Of a stretch of 64,000 nucleotides of DNA, positions 697 to 39,905 are shown in pieces (positions within the stretch are counted from its first letter, which is position 1; each line of letters opens with the position of its first letter). Position numbers and translations under genes: made by a program. Source of the DNA: Anaerobacillus isosaccharinicus (GTDB lineage: Bacteria > Bacillota > Bacilli > Bacillales > Anaerobacillaceae); assembly GCF_001866075.3 (NCBI RefSeq), contig NZ_CP063356.1:2904164-2968163 (forward strand), in the 5' to 3' direction. Under the pieces are notes generated by a model. The model was not told the DNA's origin and ran no database searches. It saw only the letters and a list, made by a program, of their open reading frames with translations.

Positions 697-799
697 AAAT
701 GTAGAATGTAGAATTTAAAATGTGAAATTAGCGATTGTAATGCTTCGTAGCGATTACCCTCAACAATTCTATATTCTACATTTTACATTCTAAATTAAA
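697..799. repeat. Heptad-armed palindromic element R1 (hemX-hemC)
   Basis: The left arm (697-729) holds tandem 7-bp units of the type TGTAGAA/TTTAAAA/TGTGAAA. The centre contains GCTTCGTAGC at 742-751. The right arm (765-798) holds the inverted units TTCTATA, TTCTACA, TTTTACA, TTCTAAA. The arms are complementary, so the transcript would form a long imperfect hairpin between two operon genes. The hemC Shine-Dalgarno site follows immediately. Confidence 0.85.
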
Positions 800-812
800 A
801 TGGGGGTTTATC

Positions 813-1745
813 ATGAGAAAAATTATTGTAGGTTCTAGGAAAAGTCAGCTAGCTTTAACTCAAACGAACTGGGTAATTGAACAGTTAAAAAATATAGGTG
901 GTCCATTTGAGTTTGAAGTTAAAAAGATTGTTACTAAAGGGGACCAAATTTTAGATGTAACACTGTCTAAAGTTGGTGGTAAAGGCTTATTTGTAAAAGA
1001 AATAGAGCAAGCAATGCTTGATAACGATATAGATATGGCGGTTCATAGTATGAAGGATATGCCTGCTGTACTTCAAGAAGGATTAACAATCGGTTGTGTA
1101 CCAACGCGTGTTGATCCACGTGACGCTCTTATTTCAAATAGTGGCAAAGGATTAATGGAACTTGATCCAGGTACAGTTGTGGGAACAAGCAGTTTACGTC
1201 GTTCTGCTCAACTTTTAGCAAAGCGTCCAGACTTAGAAGTAAAATGGATCCGCGGGAATATCGACTCACGTATTAAAAAATGCAGAGACGGTGAGTACGA
1301 TGCGATTATTTTAGCTGCAGCTGGATTAGAGCGTATGGGCTGGAGTGCTGATGTTGTCACCGAATATATTTCTTCAGAGTTATGTGTACCTGCAGTTGGG
1401 CAAGGTGCATTAGGAATCGAGTGCCGTACAAATGATACTGAGTTAAGAGAGTTGCTTGCTAAGTTTACAGATGCTGTAACAGAGCGTTGTGTAACTGCAG
1501 AGCGTGCCTTCCTCCACAAAATTGAGGGTGGTTGCCAAGTACCTATTGCTGGATTTGCAGAGTTAAATGAAAACGGTGAGATTGTGTTAGTTGGTCTAGT
1601 TGGATCTCCTGATGGAAAAACAATTTTACATGAAACATTAGTTGGAACAGATGCACAAAGCTTAGGAGAAGAGTTAGCTGTGAAACTTCTTGATAAAGGT
1701 GCAAAAGAAATACTTGATGCTGTTAGAGCAGATTTAGATAAATAA
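813..1745 (+). CDS. hemC: Hydroxymethylbilane synthase (porphobilinogen deaminase)
   Basis: This enzyme condenses four porphobilinogens into hydroxymethylbilane in the cytoplasm, a step of heme/siroheme/B12 synthesis. The 310 residues are full length for the family. The N-terminus [15 protein letters not shown] and the cofactor-attachment motif GGCQVPIAG are visible; the dipyrromethane cofactor would be on Cys241. [11 protein letters not shown] and the [10 protein letters not shown] region are further family signatures. The ATG at 813 has a GGGGG-type Shine-Dalgarno site just upstream. The stop overlaps the hemD start by one base (TAATG), which implies translational coupling. Confidence 0.98.
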
Positions 1746-2524
1746 TGGATCTTCAAGGTAAAAAGATATTAGTGACGAGGGCAAAGGCACAAGCCTCTGC
1801 TCTCTCGTCACAAATAGAGGCAAATGGTGGAGTTCCAGTTGAGATGCCACTCATTTCATGCAAAGAAGTAGAAAACAAATGTGCAATCCACAACGCAGTT
1901 AATTCTATACATACATATGATTGGATTGTTTTTACGAGTAAAAATGGAATTGACTTCTTTTTGCTGGAATATGTGAAACTTAAGGGAACAACTAAAATTC
2001 CGTGCAAAATTGCCGTAGTTGGTAAAAAGACGGAAGATATTTTAGCTGACTATGGGTTACATGCAGATCTTATTCCTAAATTATTCGTAGCTGAGAGCTT
2101 ATTAGAAAGTTTACTTAACGTTCTTCATACAGGGGAGCGTGTCCTATTTCCACGTGGTAATTTAGCAAGAACGGTAATACCAGAGAGCTTAAGAGAGAAT
2201 AATATTTATGTAAATGAATTAGACGTCTATGAAAATGTAATCGAAGACAATTCAAAAGATCAATTATATAAAGCTATTTTAAATCAAGAAATTGATGTGG
2301 TTACATTTACAAGTTCATCAACTGTTGATAACTTTGTTAAATTACTAGAAGGAACAAATTGGCGAGATCATATTGGGGAAATGATTTTTGCCTCAATCGG
2401 GCCGATTACTTCTAAAACAATGCTTAAACATGGTCTACCTGTTCATGTTGAGCCAAGTGAATATACAATCCAAGGCATGCTTGATAGTGTTATGGACAAC
2501 CTAAAGGAGGATAAATCATGTTAG
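1745..2524 (+). CDS. hemD: Uroporphyrinogen-III synthase
   Basis: HemD closes and inverts ring D of hydroxymethylbilane to give uroporphyrinogen III. The family is poorly conserved, but the N-terminus [20 protein letters not shown], the two alternating Rossmann-like halves, the [11 protein letters not shown] motif and the C-terminal [13 protein letters not shown] segment are typical. The 259-residue length is normal. The gene overlaps the hemC stop by one base and its own end overlaps the start of hemB by seven bases, so it is tightly coupled in the operon. Confidence 0.95.
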
Positions 2525-3498
2525 AATTTAAAAGACATCGTCGTCTACGTCAAACGGCAAATCTCCGTTCTATGGTAAGAGAAACAGTGTTAAAAACAGA
2601 GGATTTAATCTACCCAATCTTTGTGATTGAAGGGGAAACGAATAAAAAAATTGAAGTAGCATCGATGCCAGGAGTATTTCAAATCTCATTTGATCTTTTA
2701 GAAGAAGAAATTAATACGATTACAGAACTAGGAATAGTTTCAGTTATCGTATTTGGAGTTCCAAAAGATAAAGATGAAGTTGGAACATCTGCTTATTGTG
2801 AGCATGGTATTGTTCAACAAGCGATCAAAAAGATCAAACAAGTAAACAACGAGCTAGTTGTTATAGCTGATACTTGTCTTTGTCAATTTACAAACCATGG
2901 TCACTGTGGCGTTATAGAAGAAGGAATCGTCTTAAATGACCCAACTCTTGATCTTTTAGCTAAAACAGCAGTTTCTCAAGCAAAAGCTGGCGCAGATGTC
3001 ATTGCTCCTTCAAACATGATGGATGGATTTGTTGCAGCGATTCGTCATGGGTTAGATGAAGCTGGTTTCGCACATATTCCAATCATGTCTTATGCCGTTA
3101 AATATTCTTCTGCATTTTACGGACCGTTCCGTGATGCTGCTCACAGTGCTCCATCATTTGGTGACCGTAAAACATACCAAATGGACCCGGCTAACCGCTT
3201 AGAAGCTCTTCGCGAAGCAGAGAGTGATGTTTTAGAAGGTGCAGACTTTTTAATTGTAAAGCCAGCTCTTTCTTACTTAGATATTATTCGTGAAGTAAAA
3301 GATAATTTTTCATATCCCGTTGTTGCTTACAACGTGAGTGGTGAATACTCAATGATTAAAGCTGCTAGCTTAAACGGTTGGATTGATGAAAAGTCGGTTG
3401 TTATGGAAAAACTAATTAGTATGAAACGTGCCGGAGCTGATTTAATCATTACTTATTTCGCCAAAGACGTTGCGAAATGGTTAAACGAAGGGAAATAA
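2518..3498 (+). CDS. hemB: Delta-aminolevulinic acid dehydratase (porphobilinogen synthase)
   Basis: HemB condenses two 5-aminolevulinates into porphobilinogen. The 326-residue protein has the cysteine-rich zinc motif [14 protein letters not shown] and both active-site lysine regions, [18 protein letters not shown] and [14 protein letters not shown]. The cysteine motif predicts a zinc-dependent enzyme. The start is preceded by AAGGAGG inside the end of hemD. Downstream of the stop begins the compound repeat R2, which separates it from hemL. Confidence 0.98.
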
Positions 3499-3777
3499 AT
3501 AGTTTAGAGTTTATAGTGTGTAGAGTTGTTTTTTGCAATTGGCTCGAAGGCTCGCGTGCAGCTCTCATATCGGACCTGAGTTCCGTTATTTTTGATAAAA
3601 TTGACTTTTCTCAAAATTATCGGACATCAGTTCCGTTATTCCTACCTAAAGGGCTTATTTGACCCGTAAATCTAGGAAATAACGTATCTCATGTCCGTTA
3701 GCATCTAAGAAACAGCCCTTTATCGATAATTAACGGAACTCATGTCCGATCCGAAACATTCTACATTCTACATTACC
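3499..3777. repeat. Heptad-armed element R2 with a nested second palindrome
   Basis: The outer arms are heptad type: the left (about 3502-3530) is of class B (GTTTAGAGTTTATAG, GTGTAGAG) and the right (3756-3776) of class A (ACATTCTACATTCTACATT). Between them lies a different palindromic family described at 3568-3752. The region fills the gap between hemB and hemL, and no gene is supported in it. The only long reading frame here overlaps hemB and is not credible. Confidence 0.75.
3568..3752. repeat. Nested inverted repeat with four 23-bp GGACATGAGTTCCGTTA-type units
   Basis: Two direct units (3568-3591 and 3618-3640, consensus TATCGGACNTNAGTTCCGTTA) are followed by two inverted units (3675-3701 and 3730-3752, TAACGGAACTCATGTCCGAT type). 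The inner flanks AAAGGGCT (3648) and AGCCCTTT (3714) also pair. Together they can fold into a large cruciform or RNA hairpin. I did not see the unit elsewhere in the window. It looks like a separate mobile palindromic repeat inserted in R2. Confidence 0.75.
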
Positions 3778-3792
3778 TAAGGGGGATATAAG

Positions 3793-5082
3793 ATGAGAAC
3801 TTTTGATAAATCAAGTGCAGCTTTTGCGAAAGCAAAGGAAATAATGCCTGGTGGAGTAAATAGTCCGGTTCGTGCTTTTAAATCGGTGAAAATGGATCCT
3901 GTTTTTATGGAGCGTGGAAAAGGATCTAAGATTTATGATATTGATGGAAATGAATACATAGATTATGTTCTTTCTTGGGGACCACTAGTGTTAGGTCATG
4001 TGGATGACCAAGTAACAGAAGCGTTAAAAAAAGCGGCTGAGCTAGGGACAAGCTTTGGTGCACCTAGTGAATTAGAAACAAAAATGGCCGAGTTAGTCAT
4101 TGAGCGTGTTCCTTCGGTTGAAGTTGTACGTATGGTTAATTCAGGAACAGAAGCAACGATGAGTGCTTTACGTTTAGCTCGTGGTTATACTGGTCGCAAC
4201 AAAATATTAAAGTTTGAAGGCTGTTACCATGGCCATGGTGACTCTTTATTAATTAAGGCCGGTTCAGGAGTCGCTACTCTTGGTCTTCCAGATAGCCCTG
4301 GTGTTCCTGAAGCTGTGGCAATGAATACATTAACGGTTCCTTTTAACGACTTAGAGAGCTTACGCTATGCGTTTGAAGAGTTCGGTGACGATATTGCTGC
4401 TGTTATTTTAGAGCCTGTAGCAGGAAACATGGGAGTTGTTCTTCCACAACCAGGATTTTTAGAAGCGGTTCGTGAAATTACGGAACAAAATGGAACATTA
4501 CTCATTTTTGATGAAGTCATGACAGGCTTCCGTGTTGGGTACCATTGTGCCCAAGGTGTGTTAGGAATTACACCTGATTTAACTTGTTTAGGAAAAGTAA
4601 TCGGCGGTGGACTTCCAGTAGGCGCATACGGTGGTAAGCGTGAAATTATGGAAATGATCGCTCCTGCTGGACCGATTTATCAAGCAGGAACGCTGTCAGG
4701 TAATCCATTAGCGATGACTGCCGGATACGAAACATTATCCCAATTGACACCTGCTCACTACGAAGAATTTAACCGTCTTGGCAAGAAGCTTGCCGATGGC
4801 CTATCAGCAGCAGCGACTCAGTACGGAATTCCACATCGTACGAGCCAAGCTGGTTCAATGATTGGTTTCTTCTTTACAGATCAAGAAGTGACGAATTACG
4901 AGCAAGCAAAAAAATCGGACTTAGATCGCTTTGCAACATACTTCCGTTACATGCTTGAAGAAGGGGTATCATTACCACCTTCACAGTTTGAAGGAATGTT
5001 CCTTTCTACGAAGCACACGGATGAGGATATTGAGAAGACCATTGCGGCGGCAGATAAGGCGTTTGCGATGTTGGTTAAATAA
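3793..5082 (+). CDS. hemL: Glutamate-1-semialdehyde 2,1-aminomutase
   Basis: A PLP-dependent enzyme that turns glutamate-1-semialdehyde into 5-aminolevulinate, the first committed metabolite of the C5 tetrapyrrole pathway. The 429 residues are standard. [12 protein letters not shown] at the N-terminus, [39 protein letters not shown] and the lysine motif [17 protein letters not shown] are all present. The ATG follows AAGGGGGATATAAG. It ends the hem operon and a strong terminator follows at 5096. Confidence 0.98.
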
Positions 5083-5095
5083 TTATAATTTTAAG

Positions 5096-5133
5096 AGGTC
5101 AAACACTTTTTACTATAGTGTTTGACCTTTTTT
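5096..5133 (+). terminator. Rho-independent terminator of the hem operon
   Basis: The stem AGGTCAAACACT / AGTGTTTGACCT with a short loop is followed by a run of seven T. It closes the hem operon. Confidence 0.93.
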
Positions 5134-5312
5134 TCAGTTGGTAAAGAAATTAGCCAGTGTTGAACAGAGTAGAATACAAATCATTCATTACTATTTCATC
5201 TATCTACAACGTTGAAGATAACAAAATTACTTCAAGATTCTTCACCTAACTACTGAAAGTAAGCTTTTAAAAAAAACTCCAAGCTTTAAAAGTAATTTTT
5301 CCTATAAAACAA

Positions 5313-5341
5313 TCATATTTTTCTAGATCTTGTCATAAATC
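5313..5341 (+). promoter_or_regulatory. Candidate SigE promoter for spoVID
   Basis: TCATATT at 5313-5319 fits the SigE -35 consensus KMATATT exactly. CATAAATC at 5334-5341 resembles the -10 consensus CATACAMT, with a 14-bp spacer. spoVID is SigE-dependent in B. subtilis, which supports the call. The rest of the 345-base gap 5083-5428 holds only the hem terminator and AT-rich DNA. Confidence 0.6.
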
Positions 5342-5428
5342 TTTAACGTATTGGATAAGTCCGTTTAAGAGGACGTGTTCCTTAGTTTTGCGGAAGTTAC
5401 TCAAATTATAATAGAGGAGGAGATCTAG

Positions 5429-6703: not shown

Positions 6704-6728
6704 AGTCACTAGGATAGGGTGCAATAAT

Positions 6729-9172: not shown

Positions 9173-10387
9173 TTGAAAATAGCCATTCAATTTGCCTGGA
9201 AAATCATTAAAGAAAAGCGCCATAGAGCATTTTTACTTGGAGGAAGCACAGCAGTCGCAGCCTTTTTATTATTTACTAGCTACTTTTTTATTCATTCGTT
9301 AAATGCTAGTTTGGTTGCTCTTGATGGCCGTTTAGGAGCGGATATCATCGTAGTTCCTAAAGGAATGGGTTCTTATGCGGGTGAAAATATCTTCTCTGGA
9401 GCAGTTAGTGAACTTTATTTAGACGAACGTCATGCCATGGAAAAAATATTAGCCATTGAAGATATTACCGAGTGGGCGCCACAACTGTTTCTGCAAACGA
9501 TATCAACATCTTGTTGTGGCACAATGGGGGACTTTCCCGTTGTTGCTTTTGACCCTGATCTCGATTTTACATTAAGTTCGTTTATGCCAGGTTCACAACA
9601 ATTAGGAGAAAATGAAATTGTTATTGGCGTGAATGCCGGTGGCGACCGTTTTTTATATCATTATAATGACGAATATATAAAAGAAAAAGTGATGCTATTT
9701 TTACAACCTTTTATTGTGAAAAATGCACTGTTTCCTACAGGTACAGGTGCTGATGAAACCATTTTTATGAGGTTAGATACAGCGAGAAAGCTAATCGAAA
9801 ATATAGATTCGTTACAACATATTTCTGCTACAGCTCTTTCTGCTATTTACATAAATACAACTCCTCATACAGAGCTTTTTGTGAAGCAACAACTAGAAAT
9901 GGAACTAGAAGGAATGGATGTCGTATTAGGAACAGGACTAAAAGAGCAGCTTAAACAACAGATGTTTCCTTTAAAGCTACTAAGCTACGTTATGATAGCG
10001 GTAGCTTTATTACTTAACCTTCTTCAAGTTGCAACGCTTTTTACAGCGTTAATTCGAGAGCGACAAAAGGAAATAGGGATCCTGTTTGCCTTGGGTGTCC
10101 TAAAGCGGCAAGTATACCAGCTCTTATTATGGGAAGCTGGAATTGTATCGTTTATTGGCAGTTTTGTGGGAGTACTTTTTTCGTTAAGTATTTTGTATGA
10201 TCGTCAAACGCTTTTGTATATGATTTTTCAGCTACCACTAAAATTTCCAGATTTTCAAACAACGTTTGTTATTAGTTTTATAACCATAACGATCATTACA
10301 TTTTGTACGATAATCGCTGCACTTTATCCAGTTCACTCCTTTTTTTCGAGAGAACCTTATGAGGTTATTAGAGAAGGTGAAAACTAA
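9173..10387 (+). CDS. FtsX/MacB-type ABC transporter permease
   Basis: The best start is TTG 9173 (MKIAIQFAWKIIKEKRHRAF), seven bases after AGGGGTG; GTG 9164 overlaps the ribosome site. Topology is FtsX-like: one N-terminal membrane segment (about 22-42), a large external domain (45-270), and three C-terminal segments. The external domain carries a conspicuous STSCCGTMGD stretch, so a vicinal cysteine pair faces the outside. The C-terminal REPYEVIREGEN tail is typical of this family. It pairs with the ATPase that overlaps it (TAATG). The substrate is unknown; the cysteine pair could bind metal or form a disulfide. Confidence 0.85.
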   Translation: MKIAIQFAWKIIKEKRHRAFLLGGSTAVAAFLLFTSYFFIHSLNASLVALDGRLGADIIVVPKGMGSYAGENIFSGAVSELYLDERHAMEKILAIEDITEWAPQLFLQTISTSCCGTMGDFPVVAFDPDLDFTLSSFMPGSQQLGENEIVIGVNAGGDRFLYHYNDEYIKEKVMLFLQPFIVKNALFPTGTGADETIFMRLDTARKLIENIDSLQHISATALSAIYINTTPHTELFVKQQLEMELEGMDVVLGTGLKEQLKQQMFPLKLLSYVMIAVALLLNLLQVATLFTALIRERQKEIGILFALGVLKRQVYQLLLWEAGIVSFIGSFVGVLFSLSILYDRQTLLYMIFQLPLKFPDFQTTFVISFITITIITFCTIIAALYPVHSFFSREPYEVIREGEN

Positions 10388-11061
10388 TGATATATTTTGA
10401 GGATGTAACGAAGAAGTACCAGTTAACAAGAAGTCGGTCGATTGTCGCTTTAAACAATGTAAGTATTGAGATACATAAAGGAGAGTTTATCTCGGTAATC
10501 GGCCCGTCAGGAAGTGGAAAATCAACATTTCTTGCATTAGCAAGCCTTCTAGATAAACAAACTAATGGGGAAGTTTATTTAAATGGGAATAGAACTTCTT
10601 TACTGAAGGACAAGGAACGAACGAATTTACGTTATGAATTATGTGGATATATCTTTCAATTTGCAAGTCTTACACCAGCTCTCCCAGTGATTGATAATAT
10701 CATGCTTCCGTTATTGTTAAGGGGGAAACCACGAAAAGACCTTGAAGAACAAGCATTGAAATTATTAGCCGACGTTGGATTAAAGGACGAATACGCCTAT
10801 CATCAACCTTATCAACTTAGTGGTGGTGAACAACGGCGTGTAGCAGTAGCTAGAGCATTATTAAAAAAGCCTAAAATTCTTTTTGCAGATGAACCAACGT
10901 CGGCTCTCGATGATGGCACAGCAAAAGATCTGATAAGGTTATTTCATAAGTTACATGATCAAGGAACAACGATCGTCATGGTGACCCATGATAAAGACCT
11001 TGCAAAAGAGGGGACAGGGGTGATAGAGATTAGGGATGGGAATGTAGAATGTAGAATGTAA
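10387..11061 (+). CDS. ABC transporter ATP-binding protein (MacB/LolD type)
   Basis: A 224-residue ATPase with Walker A GPSGSGKST, Q-loop region YIFQFASLTPALPV, signature LSGGEQRRVAVARAL and Walker [13 protein letters not shown]. The start overlaps the permease stop by one base. The last codons (NVECRM) and the stop are written in heptad repeat R3, so the original C-terminus was probably altered when the element arrived. It energises the upstream FtsX-type permease. Confidence 0.93.
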   Translation: MIYFEDVTKKYQLTRSRSIVALNNVSIEIHKGEFISVIGPSGSGKSTFLALASLLDKQTNGEVYLNGNRTSLLKDKERTNLRYELCGYIFQFASLTPALPVIDNIMLPLLLRGKPRKDLEEQALKLLADVGLKDEYAYHQPYQLSGGEQRRVAVARALLKKPKILFADEPTSALDDGTAKDLIRLFHKLHDQGTTIVMVTHDKDLAKEGTGVIEIRDGNVECRM

Positions 11062-11150
11062 AATGTAAAATGTAAAATTTTTTTGTGGGTAATGCTTTGA
11101 AGTGAGTGTAGAGTTTAGAGTGTAGAGTTGAGTGGGCAGCGCTTCGAAGT
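11040..11150. repeat. Heptad repeat R3 (two left-type arrays, no inverted arm)
   Basis: Five class A heptads (TGTAGAA/TGTAAAA) occupy 11040-11078. A spacer with TGCTTTGAAG follows, then about three and a half class B units (GTGTAGAG/GTTTAGAG) at 11104-11130 and GCGCTTCGAAG at 11139-11149. No inverted arm follows. It overlaps the end of the ABC ATPase gene and lies upstream of the valS promoter. The composite layout recurs, inverted, in R6. Confidence 0.8.
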
Positions 11151-11299: not shown

Positions 11300-11652
11300 C
11301 GATATTGCTTTGAATGGGAAGAGTACATCTGTAATACCATCAGAGAGAAAAATCATTGTTAAAATGTTCGTGTAGTTTTACCGGAGATTTAAACAATTGC
11401 TGAGAGATTTTTCAGGAGCTAAAGATGGAAGGTCGCCCAGGAGCTGCATAGTTGAAAGAAGAGTTGTGACATATGTAGGCACTTACGCTTTTGGTAATGT
11501 CTAGCTTCAGTGCCCAGCCAGTAGACTATGCCGGTTTAATAACCGTTACATGAATGAAGTGTGTCTTCGACTAGTTTTTTTGACGATGGCAAACAAAGGT
11601 GGTACCGCGAATATACTCTCTTCGTCCTTTGAGGATGGAGGGAGTTTTTTAT
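11300..11652 (+). promoter_or_regulatory. T-box riboswitch leader (valyl-tRNA responsive)
   Basis: The T-box bulge sequence AAAGGTGGTACCGCG is at 11595-11609. It is followed by the terminator ACTCTCTTCGTCC / GGATGGAGGGAGT plus T run (11614-11652). Upstream elements include GAAGAGTAC near 11318 and CAGAGAGAA near 11340, as in Stem I of T-boxes. A GTC at 11432-11434 is a candidate specifier codon, although I did not fold Stem I. Uncharged tRNA-Val would stabilise the antiterminator and allow valS transcription. The 5' boundary is approximate. Confidence 0.9.
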
Positions 11653-11655: not shown

Positions 11656-11745
11656 AATGTAGAATGTAAAATGCGAAATTTAGAATTATCTTTTGTAAAG
11701 CTACGAAGCAAAGGCTTTATCATTTTACATTCTACATTTTACATT
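11656..11745. repeat. Heptad-armed palindromic element R4 (T-box to valS)
   Basis: The left arm 11656-11686 (TGTAGAA, TGTAAAA, TGCGAAA, TTTAGAA), the centre GCTACGAAGC (11700-11709, the reverse complement of the R1 centre) and the right arm 11721-11745 (TTTTACA, TTCTACA, TTTTACA). It lies between the T-box terminator and the valS ribosome site, so it is in the 5' untranslated region of every full-length valS mRNA. Confidence 0.85.
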
Positions 11746-11769
11746 GCACTTAAAGGGAGGAAATAAGAG

Positions 11770-14412
11770 ATGGCTAATCAAGAGATATCAATGCCAACAA
11801 AGTATGATCCACAAAGTACGGAAGCGAAATGGTATTCGTACTGGCTCGATGGAAAGTTTTTTGAAGCAAAAGGGGAGGAAGACAAGAAGCCTTATACAAT
11901 TGTGATTCCACCACCAAACGTAACAGGGAAGCTTCACTTAGGTCATGCATGGGATACGACATTACAAGACATTCTAATTCGTACAAAAAGAATGCAAGGC
12001 TACGACGCGTTATGGTTACCTGGGATGGACCATGCAGGAATAGCGACGCAAGCAAAAGTAGAAGGAAAGCTTCGTGAAGAAGGATTAAGTCGTTATGACT
12101 TAGGCCGTGAGAAGTTTCTGGAGAAATCATGGGAATGGAAGGGTGAGTATGCTGATTTTATCCGTAATCAGTGGTCAAAGCTTGGTCTTTCTCTAGATTA
12201 CTCTCGTGAGCGTTTCACCCTTGATGAGGGCCTTTCTAAAGCGGTTCGTGAGGTATTCGTTAAGTTATATGAAAAAGGGCTGATTTACCGTGGTGAGTAC
12301 ATTATTAACTGGGACCCACAAACGAAAACAGCGCTATCAGACATTGAAGTAATTTATAAGGATGTTCAAGGTGGCTTCTACCATATGAAGTATCCGCTCG
12401 TAGACGGCAGTGGCGACATTGAAGTTGCTACAACTCGCCCTGAGACGATGCTAGGTGATACGGCAGTTGCTGTTCACCCTGAAGATGATCGTTATAAGCA
12501 CTTAATCGGCAAAAAAGTAAAGTTACCAATCGTTGGTCGTGAAATTGAAATCGTTGCAGATGACTATGTTGATATGGAATTTGGTTCAGGTGCGGTAAAA
12601 ATTACACCTGCTCACGATCCTAATGATTTTGAGATTGGAAACAGACATAATCTTGAGCGAGTTCTTGTGATGGATGAGTCAGGAAAGATGAACGAAAATG
12701 CTGGAAAGTACCAAGGCATGGACCGTTTTGAGTGCCGTAAGCAAATTGTTAAAGATTTACAAGATGAAGGCATTTTGTTCAAAATTGAAGAGCATATGCA
12801 TTCGGTTGGTCACTCTGAGCGAAGTGGTGCAGTTGTTGAACCGTATCTTTCAACGCAATGGTTCGTTAAAATGGGGCCACTTGCAGAAGAAGCCATCAAA
12901 CTTCAACAAAAAGAAGACAAGGTTAACTTTGTTCCTGAACGCTTTGAAAAAACGTACTTACATTGGATCGAGAACATTCGTGACTGGTGTATTTCTCGTC
13001 AATTGTGGTGGGGCCACCGTATTCCAGCTTGGTACCATAACGAAACAGGTGAAATCCATGTAGGTCATGAACAACCAAAAGACATTGAGAACTGGACGCA
13101 AGACGAAGATGTACTTGACACATGGTTCTCATCAGCATTATGGCCGTTTTCAACAATGGGTTGGCCTGATGAAAACTCAGCAGACTTCAAACGTTATTAT
13201 TCAACGGACGTTTTAGTAACAGGATATGACATCATCTATTTCTGGGTAGCTCGAATGATTTTCCAAGGTTTAGAATTTACGGGTGAACGTCCATTTAAAG
13301 ATGTACTAATTCATGGCTTAGTTCGTGATTCTGAGGGCCGTAAAATGAGTAAGTCGTTAGGGAATGGTGTTGACCCAATGGATGTTATCGACAAATATGG
13401 CGCAGATGCGCTACGTTTCTTCCTTTCAACTGGAAGTTCCCCGGGAAATGATTTACGCTTCTACTGGGAAAAAGTCGAATCAACATGGAATTTCGGGAAT
13501 AAGATCTGGAATGCATCACGCTTTGCATTAATGAACATGGAAGGCTTAACTTATGATGAGATAGATCTTTCTGGTAAAAAATCGATTGCGGATCAATGGA
13601 TATTAACTCGACTTCAAGAAACAATTGATGACGTTACTCGTTTAATTGACAGCTATGAGTTTGGTGAAGTAGGACGTCTTCTTTATAACTTTATTTGGGA
13701 TGACTTCTGTGATTGGTATATTGAAATGGCTAAGTTACCGTTATATGGTGAAGACGAAGAAGCAAAGAAAATGACGCGTTCGATCTTAGCGCATGTTCTT
13801 GATCAAACGATGAAGCTTTTACATCCATTTATGCCATTTATTACAGAGGAAATCTGGCAGCATCTACCGCACCAAGGCGAATCAATTACAGTCGCTCCTT
13901 GGCCAGTGAAAGAAGATGCACTAGTGTTCCCTGAAGCAACGAAAAAAATGAACCTTTTAAAGGAAATCATTCGTTCTGTACGTAATACACGAGCAGAATT
14001 AAATGTACCGATGAGTAAAAAGATTGAACTTCTAATCAAAGCGAAAGATAGTACAATTTTAAGTAATCTTGAAGAAGGACGTAGCTATTTAGAGAAGTTC
14101 TGTAACCCAGAACAATTGATGATTGCAACAGACCTTCAAGCTCCTGAAAAATCAATGTCAACAATTCTTACAGGTGTTGATCTTTATTTACCACTTGCAG
14201 GACTTTTAGACATCGATGCTGAGATCACTCGCTTAGAAAAGGAAGTAAAGCGACTTGATAGCGAAGTAGAACGTGTGCAAAAGAAACTAGGAAACCAAGG
14301 TTTCGTAGCTAAAGCACCGGCAGCTGTAATCGAGGAAGAAAAAGCGAAAGAACAAGATTATTTAGAAAAACGTTCAACAGTTCTAGCAAGAATCGAAGAA
14401 CTAAAAGCTTAG
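11770..14412 (+). CDS. valS: Valyl-tRNA synthetase
   Basis: Class I synthetase that charges tRNA-Val in the cytoplasm; 880 residues, typical of Bacillus. The HIGH motif is in [15 protein letters not shown] (about residue 50). The CP1 editing domain is intact ([15 protein letters not shown]). The KMSKS loop reads [14 protein letters not shown] at about residue 525. The C-terminal 70 residues are the expected coiled coil that contacts tRNA. AAGGGAGG precedes the start. Expression is controlled by the T-box leader upstream. Confidence 0.99.
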
Positions 14413-20530: not shown

Positions 20531-20597
20531 TGGGAATGTAATAAATAAAAGCTATGAAGCAATCCTTTCAATAGATTTATTTTTTACATTCTACATT
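20531..20597. repeat. Degenerate heptad element R5 (after comC)
   Basis: A weak left arm (GGGAATGTAATAAATAAAA), a centre GCTATGAAGC at 20551-20560 and a right arm TTTTACATTCTACATT (20582-20597). It begins right at the comC stop and ends where the downstream gene fragment begins. Confidence 0.65.
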
Positions 20598-20897: not shown

Positions 20898-21015
20898 TCA
20901 AATCAAACCAAAGCACTACCCACACAACTCTAAACTCTACACTCAAAAACCACATCTCTGAACCACTCTCAAAAAATTCTACATTCTACATTCTAAATTT
21001 TACATTTTACATTAC
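20898..21015. repeat. Heptad repeat R6 (inverted version of R3 layout)
   Basis: AAGCACTACCCACACAACTC at 20910 is the inverted counterpart of the R3 segment TTGAGTGGGCAGCGCTT. It is followed by class B units (CTCTAAA, CTCTACA) at 20925-20944. A spacer and then five class A units (TTCTACA, TTCTACA, TTCTAAA, TTTTACA, TTTTACA) at 20977-21013 end one base before the IS target duplication. Confidence 0.8.
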
Positions 21016-26935: not shown

Positions 26936-27054
26936 ATATAAAATGCAAAATTTAGAATGTAGAATTGCGAAAGGGGTACAACGATGCATTTTTTCAGGGC
27001 TTCGTAGCACTGCTCACAACAATTTTACATTCTACATTTTACATCCTGCATTAA
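26936..27054. repeat. Heptad-armed palindromic element R7 (radC-mreB)
   Basis: The left arm 26936-26966 (TATAAAA, TGCAAAA, TTTAGAA, TGTAGAA), the centre GCTTCGTAGC at 26999-27008 and the right arm 27021-27053 (TTTTACA, TTCTACA, TTTTACA, TCCTGCA). It starts right after the radC stop; the mreB promoter-like TATAAT at 27083 lies just downstream. Confidence 0.83.
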
Positions 27055-29690: not shown

Positions 29691-30356
29691 ATGGTAAAAA
29701 CAAACTATGTAACGATAAGAGGAACCAAAGAAGGCCTAATTTTATTTTTAGACGACGAATGTTCGTTTTCTGAACTAGTTAGTGAGCTTGAAGAAAAGCT
29801 TTCCTCAAATTATCCGCAAATTTCAGAAGGACCTGCTGTCCATGTAAAAGTTTCTGTCGGAAATCGATTTTTAACTGAAGATCTGAAGAAACAGCTTATA
29901 ACAATTATTAGTGAGCAGCAAAAGCTTGTAATTAACCAAATAGAATCGAACGTAATCACAAAACAAGAAGCAGAAACCTTACAAAAAGAAGCGCAAACTG
30001 CTACGATTATGAAGGTAGTCCGTTCTGGTCAAGTATTAAGAGTTACCGGGGATCTTCTTCTCCTAGGCGATGTCAATCCTGGTGGAACAGTTGTTGCCAC
30101 AGGAAACATCTATGTTATGGGTGTTTTAAGAGGTATCGCTCATGCGGGAAGTGAAGGTAATAAAGAAGCAATCATTTCAGCTTCGAAAATGGAACCGTCG
30201 CAATTACGAATTGCTGAAATTGTTAGTCGGTCACCTGATATAAAAGATAACGAAACCCATGAAATGGAATGTGCCTACGTTGGTCGAGATAACAAAATCG
30301 CCATCGAGCGCTTACAACAAATGGGGAAAATACGTCCAGAGATAACAAACGTTTAA
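29691..30356 (+). CDS. minC: Septum site-determining protein MinC
   Basis: An inhibitor of FtsZ assembly that works with MinD to block polar septation. The 221 residues have an N-terminal FtsZ-interaction domain (ending about 105) and a C-terminal right-handed beta-helix dimer domain (VRSGQVLRVTGDLLLLGDVNPGG, then GVLRGIAHAGSEGN). GAGTTGAGGTGAAC lies upstream of the ATG. Element R8 follows the stop and separates it from minD. Confidence 0.97.
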   Translation: MVKTNYVTIRGTKEGLILFLDDECSFSELVSELEEKLSSNYPQISEGPAVHVKVSVGNRFLTEDLKKQLITIISEQQKLVINQIESNVITKQEAETLQKEAQTATIMKVVRSGQVLRVTGDLLLLGDVNPGGTVVATGNIYVMGVLRGIAHAGSEGNKEAIISASKMEPSQLRIAEIVSRSPDIKDNETHEMECAYVGRDNKIAIERLQQMGKIRPEITNV

Positions 30357-30458
30357 TAATGTAGAATGTAAAATGTAGATTGTAAAATGAGTGAATTGTG
30401 TTGCTTCGAAGCATAGTTTTCAAGAGTTCTACATTCTACATTCTGAATTCTACATTGA
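30355..30458. repeat. Heptad-armed palindromic element R8 (minC-minD)
   Basis: The left arm 30358-30388 (TGTAGAA, TGTAAAA, TGTAGAT, TGTAAAA), the centre GCTTCGAAGC (30403-30412), a perfect palindrome, and the right arm 30427-30456 (TTCTACA, TTCTACA, TTCTGAA, TTCTACA). It is within an operon, so it would be transcribed. Register alignment of the two arms gives about three quarters paired positions. Confidence 0.85.
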
Positions 30459-33525: not shown

Positions 33526-33548
33526 TTTATAATTTTTAAGAAATATGA

Positions 33549-35383: not shown

Positions 35384-36186
35384 TGAATTTAGATAAACAA
35401 TATAACATTCAAAGACCAGATCGCACCAAATATTGGATAAATTTTGGACTTATTACGATATTTATGATGTTCTTATATTATATCGCTATTTCTACAACCG
35501 ATTTAGGTTATCGAGGCTCCAAGTTATCCGCCTTCGATATGTTCAAACGTTTGTTTTTCGATACATTCTTTGATCCAACTGTACAAGCTAGAATTCCTAT
35601 GTATATTGGCTATATGTTCGAAACGTTAGCGATAGCATTTGCTGGAACTTTAATTGGTTCCATTTTAGCAATACCAATTGGCTTTTTAGCAGCTAAAAAC
35701 ATGAGTGGACATTTATCTAGCATTGGTAAAGGGATTCTAAACGGAATTCGTGCCTTCCCAGAAATATTATTTGCTGTTATTTTCGTAGCATCTGTAGGTA
35801 TGGGACCTTATGCTGGGGTATTAGCGATCGGTATCAACTCGATCGGGATGTTAGGAAAGCTATACTCTGAAGTAATCGAATCCATCGATATGAGTATCGT
35901 TGAAGCATTAAAAGCAAGTGGAGCGAACCGACTTCAAGCAATGTGGTACGGTGTAATTCCACAAGTTATTCCAGAATTCTCATCATATGCGATCTATCGT
36001 TTTGAGATCGACGTTCGTGCGTCTACAGTGTTAGGTATCGTTGGTGCCGGTGGTATCGGTGCACCAATCATCCTTGCCTCAAATCAGCGTGCTTGGGAAC
36101 AAGTAGGGATGATGTTAATCATCATCATCGTCGTCGTTACAATCATCGATTACCTAAGTGCATATATCCGCCGAAGAATTGTTTAA
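35383..36186 (+). CDS. phnE: Phosphonate-type ABC transporter permease (second)
   Basis: 267 residues, a paralogue of the gene upstream: EVIESIDMSIVEALKASGANRLQAM is its EAA loop and VLGIVGAGGIGAPIILA its C-terminal PhnE motif. Two different permease chains imply a heterodimer, as in many Bacillota phosphonate-type transporters. It is the last gene of the operon and is followed by a terminator and heptad elements R9 and R10. Confidence 0.94.
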   Translation: MNLDKQYNIQRPDRTKYWINFGLITIFMMFLYYIAISTTDLGYRGSKLSAFDMFKRLFFDTFFDPTVQARIPMYIGYMFETLAIAFAGTLIGSILAIPIGFLAAKNMSGHLSSIGKGILNGIRAFPEILFAVIFVASVGMGPYAGVLAIGINSIGMLGKLYSEVIESIDMSIVEALKASGANRLQAMWYGVIPQVIPEFSSYAIYRFEIDVRASTVLGIVGAGGIGAPIILASNQRAWEQVGMMLIIIIVVVTIIDYLSAYIRRRIV

Positions 36187-36200
36187 CTAAGTACTATCTT

Positions 36201-36233
36201 AAGAGATTAGCCCCCGTGGTTAGTCTCTTTTTT
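36201..36233 (+). terminator. Terminator of phnDCEE
   Basis: AAGAGATTAG / TTAGTCTCTT with one mismatch, then six T. Confidence 0.82.
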
Positions 36234-36330
36234 AGTTTAGAGTGTAGAGTTTAAAGTTAAGAGTTATTGAAAGTAAAGCTTCGTAGTATCTAGAACAACA
36301 TTCTACATTTTACATTCTAAATTCTCCATT
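36234..36330. repeat. Heptad-armed element R9 (class B left arm, class A right arm)
   Basis: The left array 36234-36264 is class B (GTTTAGA, GTGTAGA, GTTTAAA). The centre has GCTTCGTAG at 36278-36286. The right array 36298-36330 is class A (TTCTACA, TTTTACA, TTCTAAA, TTCTCCA). Mixed arms also occur in R2, so classes A and B belong to one family. Confidence 0.75.
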
Positions 36331-36417
36331 AACCATCGAATGACCCCAAAAACTAAACTCCCAAACTGAAAACTAATAAGCATAACCTACCCGGACAAGT
36401 CATATCTATTAACTAGA

Positions 36418-36550
36418 GAATTATGAATTATGAATTATGAATTGTAAACAAGGCATTTCAGTTCAACACACTTTTCTAAATTTGAAATTAACTGACCTCT
36501 TTGACATACATACAAAACTCTACACTCTACACTTTAAACTCTAAACTAAA
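36418..36550. repeat. Heptad element R10 in the spoIVFA leader
   Basis: Three tandem copies of GAATTAT plus GAATTG (36418-36444) form the left side. The right side (36516-36547) is an inverted class B array (CTCTACA, CTCTACA, CTTTAAA, CTCTAAA). Between them is a candidate SigE -10 box (CATACATA, 36505-36512, with GAAATTA 14 bp upstream as a weak -35). If so, the right array is in the 5' leader of spoIVFA. Confidence 0.65.
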
Positions 36551-36567
36551 AAAGGGGATGACAATAG

Positions 36568-37356
36568 ATGGCGAAAAGGGTTGATGAAATTCGTCGTGAA
36601 ATTCAGGCAAGACGGAAAAAAATGACTAGTCGTATTGGTCAAAGAGAGAGATCACAACCACAATATTATCAAAGTCATAGCGAGTCTAGAGACGATTCAG
36701 CTTACTATTTTCCTAGTGAATCAAGGGTGACTGGGGAGCCTGAAGAAAAGTTTTTTCGCAAGGACATTTTAATGATGCAAGTGTTAGCTGCTATTTGTTT
36801 ATTTCTAGTGATAGGAATATTATTTCGAACGCAATTACCACAATTTGAAGGAGCGAGGCAGTTTGTGAAAAATTCCTACGAACAGGAATTTCAGTTTGCT
36901 ACTGTTGCTAATTGGTATGAAGACCAGTTTGGAAAGCCGTTAGCACTTCTTCCGACGACAAGAAATGTCGCCTTAGATAATCTTGATAATCAAGAACATA
37001 ATCTAGCATATGCCGTTCCGGCGACTGGGCGAGTGACTAGAAGCTTTGATCAAGATGGAAAGGGTATTATGATCGAAACAGTTTCTAATTCAAATGTCGA
37101 AGCTGCTAGAAGCGGGATGGTTCGCTTTGTAGCAGAAGAAGAGAACTTAGGGAAAACAGTGATTATTGCTCATTATGACGGTGGTGAATCTTGGTATGCG
37201 ATGCTTGATAAGGTTGAGGTCAGTATTTATGATCACGTTGAGGCAGGAAGTAAGATTGGCACAGTATCGTTACAAGACAATAAAGGCTTCTACTACTTTG
37301 CTTTAAAAGAAGGAGAAACTTTTATCAATCCACTTGAAGTGATTTCATTTGATTGA
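36568..37356 (+). CDS. spoIVFA: Stage IV sporulation protein FA (regulator of SpoIVFB)
   Basis: SpoIVFA holds the SpoIVFB protease inactive in the outer forespore membrane until SpoIVB cleaves it, and so times sigma-K activation. The 262 residues have a polar, Arg/Ser-rich N-terminus, one membrane segment (about 68-87) and an external M23-like (LytM fold) domain with GRVTRSFDQDGKGIMIET and ENLGKTVIIAHYDGGESWY. It overlaps spoIVFB by eight bases, as expected for the two-gene operon. Confidence 0.93.
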   Translation: MAKRVDEIRREIQARRKKMTSRIGQRERSQPQYYQSHSESRDDSAYYFPSESRVTGEPEEKFFRKDILMMQVLAAICLFLVIGILFRTQLPQFEGARQFVKNSYEQEFQFATVANWYEDQFGKPLALLPTTRNVALDNLDNQEHNLAYAVPATGRVTRSFDQDGKGIMIETVSNSNVEAARSGMVRFVAEEENLGKTVIIAHYDGGESWYAMLDKVEVSIYDHVEAGSKIGTVSLQDNKGFYYFALKEGETFINPLEVISFD

Positions 37357-38215
37357 TATGCTATCACTTTTAAAAAAAATAAAAATTAATCCGTTATTTT
37401 GGTTTGTCATTGGTATTGGTATTTTAACGGGTTATTTTAAAGAAGTCATTATGGTGTTTAGTATTGTTTTCATTCATGAAATGGGTCATAGTATTGCGGC
37501 CCATTTTTTTAAGTGGCGAATTCGAAAAATTGAGCTCCTACCTTTTGGTGGTGTAGCTGAAGTTGAAGAATACGGAAATCGACCATTAAAAGAAGAATTC
37601 ATTGTCATTATATCTGGTCCAATTCAGCATATTTGGTTAATCGTGTTATCTTTTCTGTTACTTCCTTTTGATTTCTGGACGAGTAATGATCATCAAATGT
37701 TCATTACTCATAACTTGATGATTTTGTTGTTTAATTTGCTGCCGATTTGGCCATTAGACGGTGGTAAGCTTATGTATTTATTTTTCTCTACGAAGTATTC
37801 ATTTCAAAGAAGTCTTGAAACTACATTGAGGAGTTCGCTATTATTATTGGCTATTTTTACAATAACGAGCATTTATTTTTTTCCATTTCATTTAAATCTT
37901 TGGATTGTTATTATATTTCTTCTCTTTAGTCACTATTTCGATTGGAAGCAGCGAAGTTATGCTTATATGCGTTTCTTAATGGAAAGGTACTATAAAACGG
38001 ACGAACCATTTGTGGCAACAGTTCCAATTGGTGTTTCACCGCAACTAACTGTCCAAGAGGTATTGAAAACATTTAGGCGCGGTGTTAAACATAAGGTTGT
38101 TCTTAATGATCTTTCGGTGGCTCCTAAAAAATCAATTTATGAAAAGGTAATCTTAAAAGCCTTTTTTGAACAAAAGATGGCAAGCCAACCAATAGCCAAA
38201 CTTACACCACCGTAA
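37349..38215 (+). CDS. spoIVFB: Stage IV sporulation protein FB, intramembrane metalloprotease
   Basis: SpoIVFB cleaves pro-sigma-K inside the mother cell membrane. The 288 residues carry the zinc motif HEMGH at about residue 44, LLPFGGVAEVEEYGNRPLKEE, and the third metal ligand region WPLDGGKL, followed by a C-terminal CBS-like domain. I chose TTG 37349 because the resulting N-terminus (MIDMLSLLKKIKINPLFW) has the same length as that of B. subtilis; ATG 37358 is possible. Confidence 0.95.
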   Translation: MIDMLSLLKKIKINPLFWFVIGIGILTGYFKEVIMVFSIVFIHEMGHSIAAHFFKWRIRKIELLPFGGVAEVEEYGNRPLKEEFIVIISGPIQHIWLIVLSFLLLPFDFWTSNDHQMFITHNLMILLFNLLPIWPLDGGKLMYLFFSTKYSFQRSLETTLRSSLLLLAIFTITSIYFFPFHLNLWIVIIFLLFSHYFDWKQRSYAYMRFLMERYYKTDEPFVATVPIGVSPQLTVQEVLKTFRRGVKHKVVLNDLSVAPKKSIYEKVILKAFFEQKMASQPIAKLTPP

Positions 38216-38265
38216 ATATTTGGTATATCGTATTATAAATGCTATAATTTAATAACGTAAAATTG

Positions 38266-38297
38266 AACCAGCCATACGAATAATGGCTGGTTTTTTC
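38266..38297 (+). terminator. Terminator of spoIVFAB
   Basis: AACCAGCCAT / ATGGCTGGTT followed by T residues. Confidence 0.92.
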
Positions 38298-38328
38298 CAC
38301 AAGAATGGTGAAAAAAGAAGGGATCTAA

Positions 38329-39813
38329 ATGAAAACATTCATCTTTAATATGTTAACGAATGAACGGCGTCTTGCTATATTAGAAGATAAAAAAGCCGTT
38401 GAAATATTAATTGAAAGACCAGATATTAATAAGATTGTTGGGAATGTTTATAAAGGGAAAGTAGTAAATGTTCTTCCAGGAATGCAATCAGCTTTCGTAG
38501 ACATTGGCCTTGATAAAAATGGATTCTTATATCGAGACGAGTTAGTTAGCTTTCAGCAATCACCAGAAACTGAAGAAGTAAAAAAGGAACGGTCAATCTC
38601 TCAATTTGTAACTGTAGGTCAAGAAATATTAGTCCAAGTTACAAAAGAAGGCTTTGGGAAAAAAGGACCTAGGCTTTCTGAAGTTGTCTCGTTTCCGGGT
38701 AAATATATTGTTTACATGCCTAACGCAGGTTACATCGGTGTATCAAAAAGAATGCAAACTGAAGAAGTTCGTGAACAGTGGCGAACAGTTGGAGCAGATC
38801 TTTGCCAAGGTGAGGAAGGAATGATTATTCGAACAGCTACTGAAGGTTTAACAAAGGAAAAGGTGGCGCAAGATTTGTTTTTCTTACGCAAGCTTTGGGA
38901 AGAAGTTTGGAAAGAAGGGAAAAATCTAAAGCCACCTTCTCTCATTTATGAAGATAATTCAATTTTAGAAAAAGTAGTTAGAGACATAAACTTTGATGAA
39001 GTAGAAAAAATTATCATTGATACGATGAAAGATTATTTGCTGCTAAAAGAAATGTTCACTCCTTTTCCTGAATTACTTGAGAAACTAGAATTTTATCAAG
39101 GAAAAGAGGGTTTATTTACTTACTATAATATTGAGGCAGAGCTTGAAAAAGCGATGCGTAGGCAAGTGTGGTTAAAGAGCGGAGCGTATTTAGTTATTGA
39201 TCAAACAGAGGCGTTAACAGTATTTGATGTGAATACTGGGAAGTTCACTGGCAAACAAGACTTACAAGATACAATCGTAAAAACAAATATTGAAGCAGCT
39301 AAAGAAATCGCCAGACATTTACGCCTGCGAGATATAGGCGGAATTATTATTATCGATTTCATTGATATGAAGCATGATAAAGACAAAGAAACTGTATTAC
39401 GTGCTTTTAACACGGTGCTTAAAAATGATCGTACAAAAACAAATGTACTAGGTTTCACAGGACTAGGGCTGTTAGAAATGACTCGGAAAAAGGTTCGTCA
39501 AAACCTCCAAGATAGCGTTTCATCCACTTGCCCTACCTGCCATGGTAAAGGAAAGGTTCTTTCAGACGAAGCCATCGCTCATAAAGTAGAAAGGGCACTA
39601 TGGGAATACAAAGGAATGGATAGTGACGCGATCCTTGTTGAAGTCCCACCAACGGTTGTTCCAATCATAAAAGGCACAAAAGACGAGCATGTGAAACGCC
39701 TAGAAAACGCACTTCATTATCAAATCTTCATAAAACCAAACGAGGAGTTAGCTCCAAACGACTTTGCCATCCGATTCGTCGGTAGCGTCGAGGATGTTGT
39801 GAGTAGAATGTAG
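38329..39813 (+). CDS. rng: Ribonuclease E/G family endoribonuclease
   Basis: 494 residues. An S1 RNA-binding domain (about 35-125, NVYKGKVVNVLPGMQSAFVD), the catalytic DNase I-like core with TVFDVNTGKFTG and DIGGIIIIDFIDM, and the zinc-link motif CPTCHGKGKV identify RNase E/G; the length is that of RNase G. It processes rRNA or degrades mRNA. The last three residues (SRM) and stop are written by element R11, so the native C-terminus may have ended differently. AAGAAGGGATC precedes the ATG. Confidence 0.95.
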   Translation: MKTFIFNMLTNERRLAILEDKKAVEILIERPDINKIVGNVYKGKVVNVLPGMQSAFVDIGLDKNGFLYRDELVSFQQSPETEEVKKERSISQFVTVGQEILVQVTKEGFGKKGPRLSEVVSFPGKYIVYMPNAGYIGVSKRMQTEEVREQWRTVGADLCQGEEGMIIRTATEGLTKEKVAQDLFFLRKLWEEVWKEGKNLKPPSLIYEDNSILEKVVRDINFDEVEKIIIDTMKDYLLLKEMFTPFPELLEKLEFYQGKEGLFTYYNIEAELEKAMRRQVWLKSGAYLVIDQTEALTVFDVNTGKFTGKQDLQDTIVKTNIEAAKEIARHLRLRDIGGIIIIDFIDMKHDKDKETVLRAFNTVLKNDRTKTNVLGFTGLGLLEMTRKKVRQNLQDSVSSTCPTCHGKGKVLSDEAIAHKVERALWEYKGMDSDAILVEVPPTVVPIIKGTKDEHVKRLENALHYQIFIKPNEELAPNDFAIRFVGSVEDVVSRM

Positions 39814-39905
39814 TTTTAGAATGTAGAATGTAGAATGGTGAGAGTTTCGCTACGAAGCTTAGCTTTCAATTAATTCTACATTTTGAATTTTACATTCTAC
39901 ATTAA
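39803..39905. repeat. Heptad-armed palindromic element R11 (rng-rplU)
   Basis: The left arm 39803-39838 (AGTAGAA, TGTAGTT, TTAGAA, TGTAGAA, TGTAGAA), the centre GCTACGAAGC at 39849-39858 and the right arm 39872-39904 (TTCTACA, TTTTGAA, TTTTACA, TTCTACA). It overlaps the last codons of rng and ends six bases before the rplU -35 box. Confidence 0.85.

What the first reader, a model, noticed from the sequence alone, without database searches (positions are those of the whole stretch)
697..39905. A family of heptad-armed palindromic intergenic elements
Eleven loci (R1-R11 in the feature list) share one architecture: arms of two to five tandem 7-bp units (TGTAGAA/TGTAAAA, or class B TGTAGAG/TTTAGAG), a 30-60-base middle that in most copies contains GCTTCGTAGC, GCTACGAAGC or GCTTCGAAGC, and inverted arms (TTCTACA/TTTTACA). 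Unit number varies, and the 7-bp period is kept although single bases differ, which points to slippage or unit-wise growth rather than copying of a fixed element. Tandem heptamers (STRR) are known from heterocystous cyanobacteria, but I know of no described Bacillaceae family with inverted heptad arms around a conserved centre. No protein is linked to it in the window.
Basis: partly seen in the sequence, partly recalled or inferred. Interest (0 to 1): 0.75.

Follow-up and report, generated by a model that had tools for sequence, protein, structure and literature searches.

The report
Inverted heptad brackets at gene edges
Many gaps between genes in this bacterium are filled by a pair of facing arrays of a 7-letter DNA word, often around a small hairpin; related species keep such pairs in the same gaps but spell the word differently, and arrays of the same kind turn up in distant bacteria, so something may be reading them.

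Summary
Six window loci have both arms and the core; five are single arms or composites. The own genome gives 255 overlapping whole-element matches against 1 in the control; 7 (with its multiple 14) is the only enriched period.

What the finding missed: (1) all heptad classes share one C-poor frame, RARTKNN, with A2 and T4 nearly fixed. (2) Elements sit at gene edges, 41 of 66 starting at the stop codon. (3) Related species carry elements in the same gaps, in 24 of 29 compared pairs with another heptad class in both arms; two congeners have no match to the four-unit frame. (4) The same inward-facing architecture occurs in other phyla.

It does not behave as a recently copied mobile element: inner parts are about 44% alike, no target duplications, Y1 transposases do not track it. 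Units of one arm are no more alike than units of different elements in the own genome, so slippage alone fails.

Closest known: inverted GGGAATC heptamers of Xanthomonas (PMC4692102). Best reading: iterated recognition sites for an unidentified factor. New variant of a known, unexplained kind.

The parts
697..797 (.). complete element: left arm 698-720, core GCTTCGTAGC 742-751, right arm 766-796; begins 3 bp after the stop codon of ORF 29-694
   Evidence: RNA fold -24.7 kcal/mol, z -4.9
3756..3774 (-). single right-type arm, 18 bp before the ORF starting at 3793
11041..11150 (+). composite: class A left-type arm 11041-11078 (overlaps the end of ORF 10387-11061), class B left-type arm 11104-11128, core GCTTCGAAGT 11141-11150, no right arm seen
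11656..11746 (.). complete element between a T-box leader (11301-11632) and the 880-aa ORF starting at 11770
   Evidence: z -4.9
20540..20596 (.). partial element: core-like GCTATGAAGC 20551-20560 and right arm 20582-20595; no clear left arm
20923..21013 (-). two right-type arms in tandem: class B 20926-20948 and class A 20976-21013
26941..27052. complete element, core GCTTCGTAGC 26999-27008; same gap holds an element with another heptad class in G002, G005, G003; G001 has a hairpin without arrays there
   Evidence: z -5.2
30358..30456 (.). complete element, core GCTTCGAAGC 30403-30412, begins at the stop codon of ORF 29691-30356; same gap occupied in G002 and G003 (both nearest to class A), G005 and G004 (class C); no element in G006
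   Evidence: z -5.9
36234..36330 (.). complete element with mixed arms: left class B, right class A; core GCTTCGTAGT 36278-36287
   Evidence: fold not significant, z -1.5
36418..36547 (.). two arms of different class (GAATTAT 36418-36443; class B 36515-36547), no core found
39803..39903 (.). complete element, core GCTACGAAGC 39849-39858; left arm overlaps the last codons of ORF 38329-39813; upstream of an L21 leader at 39968
   Evidence: z -7.2

Best explanation
These are gene-edge heptad brackets. Each is a pair of inward-facing arrays, usually 4-5 units, of a C-poor heptad RARTKNN, in this genus usually around a short hairpin core (GCTTCGAAGC). SHOWN: the frame, the near-fixed A2 and T4, the inward polarity, placement at stop codons or just before start regions, shared occupancy of particular gaps between species, unit-wise gain and loss, and different spelling of the arms in related species. 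INFERRED: each heptad is a recognition site for a trans-acting factor that reads A2-R3-T4 every 7 nt, so units are held to a genome-wide motif while inner parts drift; when the factor's preference shifts, or an element is replaced by one of another class, both arms change; where the factor is lost (G001, G006?) the arrays vanish. Where it acts is inferred too: most likely on transcripts or transcribed DNA at gene ends, because elements sit in operon gaps, after a T-box, in a 23S-5S rRNA spacer, and rarely between divergent genes.
For: Frame and fixed columns: with units judged only by their neighbours, A2 is 0.91-0.94 and T4 0.89-0.92 in five species and 0.95/0.95 in other phyla; R3 is mostly A in G000 and G002, mostly G in G005, G003, G004. 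Units behave as draws from one genome-wide motif in G000. Gene edges: 41 of 66 elements within 11 bp of the upstream stop codon against 21.9 for uniform placement, at most 31 in 2000 simulations; in gaps with more than 60 free bp 18 of 37 against 2.9; 10 of 10 elements in convergent gaps have an end within 16 bp of a stop. Same gaps in relatives: G000/G005 both 14, one only 3 and 3, neither 63 (p 1.5e-10); G002 11, 7, 0, 61; G003 4, 0, 0, 17. Both arms of another class than in G000: G005 13 of 14, G002 8 of 11, G003 3 of 4. Other phyla: inverted array on the 3' side of the G-strand in 86 of 158, on the 5' side in 8 of 158; G-strand 5' end within 20 bp of a stop 41 of 70 or of an opposite-strand start 28 of 75, 3' end 6 of 49 and 11 of 101. 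Transcribed places. In four genomes 68 elements lie in co-directional, 10 in convergent and 1 in divergent gaps; 12 of 148 G000 gaps up to 600 bp are divergent.
Against: No factor was identified and no binding measured. The slower change of A2 and T4 between G003 and G004 (11 of 330 against 90 of 654) is confounded: all units share A2 and T4, so an alignment slipped by one unit shows changes only elsewhere. In G003 and G002 units of one arm are more alike than units of different elements, so local duplication matters there. Arm classes are mixed in some elements (G005 3 of 22 B-C; window 36234). A recognition model does not by itself say why the arrays stand exactly at gene edges. The motif used to find arrays is the motif claimed, except (period only; units judged by neighbours). 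G001 and G006 were judged from GARTKNN; G006 has arrays of another heptad, GAAAGTA, and G001 has a hairpin with GAGTTTA units at one gap. The backward-pattern control also rings in G002-G005 (18, 60, 135, 58 for G002, G003, G004, G005), since arrays such as GAGTTTT read the same backwards; it is 0 in G000.
Confidence: 0.42

Rival explanations
1. MITE-like mobile elements whose terminal inverted repeats happen to be iterated heptads; the classes are transposon families that spread in different species and re-enter the same tolerated gaps.
For: Inverted ends, several classes, many copies; no element in G006 at 30356 and at L074:1470; at the orthologue of 30356 the whole element, inner part included, differs between G003 and G004 while both flanks agree; several cores and arrays stacked in one G003 gap.
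Against: No near-identical copies: median identity of inner parts 0.44, best pair 0.76 among 51 G000 elements, whereas 13 near-full-length copies of a conventional repeat in G003 are 77-92% alike. No target duplication of 5 bp or more in 44 elements; 4 bp in 7 against 3.4 shuffled, at most 9. Y1 transposases do not track the elements: G003 0 (genome 80% complete), G001 17. Occupied gaps are a minority and strongly shared, and 8 of 12 G003/G004 array places are 0.87-0.95 alike.
Confidence: 0.22
2. Polymerase slippage at hairpins: heptad arrays are mutational satellites that grow next to stem-loops and have no function.
For: 7 of 17 alignment gaps touching arrays are 7 or 14 bp between G003 and G004, 1 of 17 elsewhere; homogeneous runs such as seven CTCTTCA in G004 where G003 has one CTCTTCA and one CTCTTAA; heptanucleotides said to be the most abundant long simple repeats in most genomes (Mrazek 2007 as cited in PMC4679880).
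Against: Units of an arm are not more alike than units of other elements in G000. One frame RARTKNN recurs in all classes and in other phyla; slippage would fix locus-specific words. No period from 4 to 13 other than 7 has more than one cluster in G000. Inward polarity and gene-edge placement. The four-unit motif has no match in 386 of 397 genomes of the order.
Confidence: 0.15
3. An RNA (or cruciform) hairpin kept by selection for base pairing of the two arms, for example an RNase III or mRNA-end stabilising site.
For: Five of six complete window elements fold far better than shuffles, z -4.9 to -7.2. Over 100 bp, native pairs of halves fold better than chimeras in G005 (p 0.010 and 0.017 on the two strands) and G002 (0.098 and 0.012).
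Against: In G000 (51 elements) native halves pair no better than halves exchanged between elements (p 0.08-0.2), nor do they in G003; in G004 the inner part is worse on one strand (p 0.008): complementarity exists at the level of the class, not of the element. In other phyla the facing array is often a different heptad (by eye). The sixth window element does not fold significantly.
Confidence: 0.12
4. Template-directed heptad addition: an enzyme with an RNA template (telomerase-like) writes the species' own heptad at these sites.
For: Units drawn from a genome-wide motif with fixed and degenerate columns; another class in both arms at the same gaps in related species; C-poor strand.
Against: No such enzyme or template was looked for; sister species share most arrays with few changes. 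Recognition explains the same facts with less.
Confidence: 0.05

Closest known systems
GGGAATC (Xanthomonas) and GGGGA(C/T)T (Nostoc) heptameric repeats, Rehm et al. 2015, PMC4692102
   Same: [quoted passage not shown] Rotated, GGGAATC reads GAATCGG, so GAAT is shared (my reading).
   Different: G-rich and quadruplex-forming there; here AT-rich, with a conserved palindromic core and at least five heptad spellings in one genus. I saw no link to heptads of other sequence in the passages read.
TAACTGA direct repeats of Beggiatoaceae, Cyanobacteria and Bacteroidetes, MacGregor 2015, PMC4679880
   Same: Intergenic heptads at gene edges; the complement contains AGTT, close to the frame (my reading).
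   Different: Mostly single arrays just before start codons; one inverted pair only.
STRR heptamers of heterocystous cyanobacteria
   Same: Tandem heptads.
   Different: Only a few inverted pairs in Nostoc according to PMC4692102.
Bacterial MITEs (bcr1, NEMIS, RUP, ERIC; named in PMC3733652)
   Same: Short, palindromic, next to coding sequences, many copies.
   Different: No copy-to-copy identity of the inner part and no target duplication found here.
REP / REPIN with RAYT
   Same: Intergenic palindromes in high copy.
   Different: Y1 transposase genes do not track presence.

Membership tests
Inverted heptameric repeats (Rehm 2015 kind) | tandem units of exactly 7 nt in gaps | tested here: met
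   Period 7 gives 64 clusters in 324 kb of G000, 14 gives 19; periods 4-6 and 8-13 at most 1 each
Inverted heptameric repeats (Rehm 2015 kind) | convergent pairs with the G-strand starting at the gene edge | tested here: met
Inverted heptameric repeats (Rehm 2015 kind) | G-quadruplex capacity | tested here: not met
   Common units have no G tract; the only GGG unit listed is GAGGGTT, 2 of 148 in G005; judged from unit sequences, no structure test
MITE | near-identical dispersed copies | tested here: not met
   Inner identity median 0.44, best 0.76; conventional repeat of the genus 77-92%
MITE | target-site duplication | tested here: not met
   0 of 44 for 5 bp or more; 4 bp 7 against 3.4 shuffled, at most 9; 3 bp 10 against 8.8
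MITE | autonomous partner with the same ends | not tested
   Whole genome not available as a file; no systematic search
REP with RAYT | associated Y1 transposase | tested here: not met
   PF01797: G000 6, G001 17, G002 2, G003 0, G004 1, G005 7, G006 7, G047 2; G003 and G004 are incomplete genomes (80%, 62%)
Described RNA families (Rfam 15) | match at gathering score | tested here: not met
   Only T-box 11301-11632 and L21 leader 39968-40049 in the window

The most novel reading that the evidence does not exclude
Inward-facing RARTKNN heptad brackets at gene edges are one system spread over many phyla, read or written by a dedicated but unknown factor that sets the spelling of the heptad in each species; TAACTGA, GGGAATC, STRR and the arrays here are its local dialects.
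Probability: 0.25. Interest if true: 0.88.

Novelty: new variant of a known kind. Interest (0 to 1): 0.62.

Why it matters
Why 7-nt repeats dominate long simple repeats in bacteria is an open question. This genus gives a handle: the same gap in related species holds an array with a different word in it, two congeners lack arrays of this frame, and sister species show units coming and going. That makes it possible to ask which gene gain or loss goes with the arrays and what reads them. The shared frame and polarity in distant phyla suggest that repeats described apart may belong together.

Tried and rejected
Transposon ends: no target duplication, no near-identical copies. RAYT/IS200 link: not borne out by distribution. 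Saturation of gaps as the reason for shared occupancy: rejected, most gaps compared are empty in both species. Vertical core with rewritten arms: cores at orthologous gaps looked no more alike than other cores (seen, not scored); at 78-82% identity this test has little power. Pairing selected within an element: not seen in G000. Stop codons at unit junctions as the selected feature: no consistent excess over independent columns (below in G000, G003, G004; slightly above in G005 and G002; above in other phyla), with a loose unit set. Scan of named genomes for class A arms plus the exact core: no match; the own genome and near kin may be left out of that scan.

Controls and rows to know: the element finder used is not clean. 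At the lower threshold block-shuffled sequence gave 0-5 per region (real 1-23) and the reversed string 0-10 (G003 10 against 11 real); class C arrays read the same backwards, so that control is void for G003. Counts rest on a pair of arms scoring at least 27 of 30, in G000 gaps up to 600 bp and partner gaps up to 900 bp. One search kept only elements with a core. Searches left out 8 elements whose centre lies inside an ORF of 70 aa or more (3 G000, 4 G005, 1 G002), and two more with a neighbour beyond 400 or 700 bp; genes were called by a simple ORF rule. In some searches, 7 of 18 aligned places were left out (four coding chance hits, two from L244, one wholly different element). Fetched G000 stretches were picked for being rich in elements, so densities are not genome averages. 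Class names are nearest-class assignments.
Full report
OBSERVATION. Period-7 arrays are present at the stated places; TGTARAA doublets are 30 against 0.39 expected and the core 18 against 3.0. Six loci are complete; five are partial or composite. In the own genome the pattern arm + gap + arm matches 255 times, registers overlapping, with 1 match in the control. In 324 kb of own sequence period 7 gives 64 clusters, its multiple 14 gives 19, and every other period from 4 to 13 at most one.

ANATOMY. Read on the strand that runs from the gene edge towards the core, all classes fit one frame, RARTKNN: A GAATGTA, B GAGTGTA/GAGTTTA, C GAGTTTT/GAGTGTT/GAGTTAT, D GAATTAT/GAATTGT, E AAATTTT/AAATTGT. 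Judging units only by their neighbours, A2 and T4 stand at 0.89-0.95 in five species and in other phyla (G047: 1.0 and 0.94 on 18 units), C is rare (at most 0.11 in a column; 0.33 in one column of G047), and R3 is mostly A in G000 (0.83) and G002 (0.90) but mostly G in G005 (0.88), G003 (0.62) and G004 (0.69). Arms in G000 have mostly 4-5 units in this frame. Between the arms lie a variable inner stretch and, in this genus, GCTTCGAAGC; a core pattern gives 21 matches in G000, 2, 5, 13 and 10 in G002-G005, 0 in G001, G006 and G047, and 0-1 in ten other genomes of the order (backward control 0-3). In G000, 46 of 51 elements have A-A arms; in G005 11 are C-C, 5 B-B and 3 B-C of 22.

PLACE. In co-directional gaps of four genomes 41 of 66 elements begin within 11 bp of the upstream stop codon, against 21.9 expected for random placement in the same gaps. 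Where more than 60 bp are free, 18 of 37 touch the stop against 2.9 expected. All 10 elements in convergent gaps have an end within 16 bp of a stop. One element lies in a divergent gap, against 68 co-directional and 10 convergent; in G000 12 of 148 gaps up to 600 bp are divergent. Elements lie between a T-box and the following gene; in G003 an array follows what reads as the end of 23S rRNA and another directly precedes 5S rRNA (only the 5S was matched by Rfam there); in G005 an array lies between 23S and 5S rRNA.

RELATIVES. The family holds seven genomes, one genus. The frame GARTKNN (three units and the start of a fourth) has 164, 219, 210, 270 and 212 matches in G000, G002, G003, G004 and G005, none in G001 and G006; of 390 other genomes of the order only G047 (82) has many, and five have 1-3. 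The backward control is 0 in G000 but 18, 60, 135 and 58 in G002-G005, because words such as GAGTTTT read the same backwards. The unrooted tree of conserved sequence is (G000,G005),G002,((G003,G006),G001), G004 not included, so absence in G001 and G006 is best read as loss, unless G003 gained its elements apart. Gaps occupied in G000 are occupied in G005 (14 of 17), G002 (11 of 18) and G003 (4 of 4), while gaps empty in G000 are nearly always empty there (3 of 66, 0 of 61, 0 of 17 occupied); G001 0 of 4 and G006 0 of 9. At the shared gaps both arms belong to another class than in G000 in 13 of 14 (G005), 8 of 11 (G002) and 3 of 4 (G003); two gaps in G002 and one in G003 keep class A in both arms (sequences). 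At 30358 G006 has a short gap with no element.

TEMPO. G003 and G004 are mostly 82-92% identical where aligned in long stretches, less in some stretches (71-77%). Of 12 array places aligned between them, 8 are 0.87-0.95 alike over the gap, inner part included, and 4 are 0.65-0.75. Of 17 alignment gaps that touch arrays 7 are 7 or 14 bp long, of 17 elsewhere 1. At the orthologue of window 30358 the entire element differs although both flanks agree, which suggests that elements can be replaced on the spot. A2 and T4 differ in 11 of 330 compared bases against 90 of 654 for columns 3, 5, 6, 7, but slipped alignment of repeats would give the same picture, so this is not proof of selection.

NOT A RECENTLY COPIED ELEMENT. 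Inner parts of 51 G000 copies are 0.44 identical at the median, 0.76 at best; a conventional repeat of the same genus shows 77-92% in 13 near-full-length copies. There is no target duplication of 5 bp or more and no relation to Y1 transposases. Exchanging halves between G000 elements does not worsen folding, so pairing is not tuned within elements there, although five of six complete window elements fold much better than shuffles. Over 100 bp native halves fold better than chimeras in G005 and, less clearly, G002, as arms agree in class; not in G003 or G004.

OTHER PHYLA. In these loci 86 of 158 arrays have an inverted array within 170 bp on the inward side and 8 of 158 on the outward side; random windows 84 of 2380. 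Of 156 arrays none lies inside an ORF of 100 aa or more; the G-strand's 5' end is within 20 bp of a same-strand stop in 41 of 70 and of an opposite-strand start in 28 of 75, the 3' end in 6 of 49 and 11 of 101. Facing arrays are often different words of the same frame (by eye).

LITERATURE. Rehm et al. 2015 (PMC4692102; passages and two sections read) describe inverted heptamer pairs in Xanthomonas with similar placement and no known function. MacGregor 2015 (PMC4679880; abstract, introduction and passages) describes TAACTGA. PMC6749651, PMC3733652 and PMC4666352 were seen as passages only. A text search for six literal array strings found no paper in the held library. Nothing on such elements in Bacillota turned up in the listings.

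VERDICT. Real, abundant, lasting in place and fast in spelling. It belongs to a known but unexplained kind, of which this is a new variant, and the comparison across species and phyla is the part likely to be new.

Noticed in passing
L113:8485-8610 (G003) and many G004 places: A conventional MITE-like repeat of about 125 bp with ends GTGAATTTCATAATTA / TGAATTATGAAATTCAT, copies in G003 77-92% alike; similar stretches seen by eye in G005 and G006 gaps.
   Followed up: partly
L064:10089-10290 (G003): Another repeat family of G003/G004 carries heptads GGTTAGT beside a different core; matches of about 70-94% in many G004 contigs.
   Followed up: no
L065:3239-3464 and the G006 gaps printed: G006 has no match to the four-unit RARTKNN frame but has heptad arrays GAAAGTA / GGAAAGT and facing CTTTCCA arrays in a few gaps.
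   Followed up: no
L088:6-413 (G003), L096:15825-16031 (G005): Heptad arrays inside rRNA operons: after 23S rRNA and, in G003, directly before 5S rRNA.
   Followed up: partly
L125, L141, L146, L184: Lentisphaerae MAGs have composite gaps with GAATTAT arrays facing GAATGCT arrays; L184 also has GCCCCTC heptads.
   Followed up: no
L074:16320-16590 and orthologues: A hairpin with GAGTTTA heptads is conserved, core included, in G000 and G005 and in simpler form, with A and T tracts, in G001; a weaker likeness in G006. It may be a bidirectional terminator from which arrays can grow.
   Followed up: partly
window 11301-11632 and 39968-40049: T-box leader before the 880-aa ORF at 11770 and ribosomal protein L21 leader, each next to a heptad element.
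   Followed up: yes
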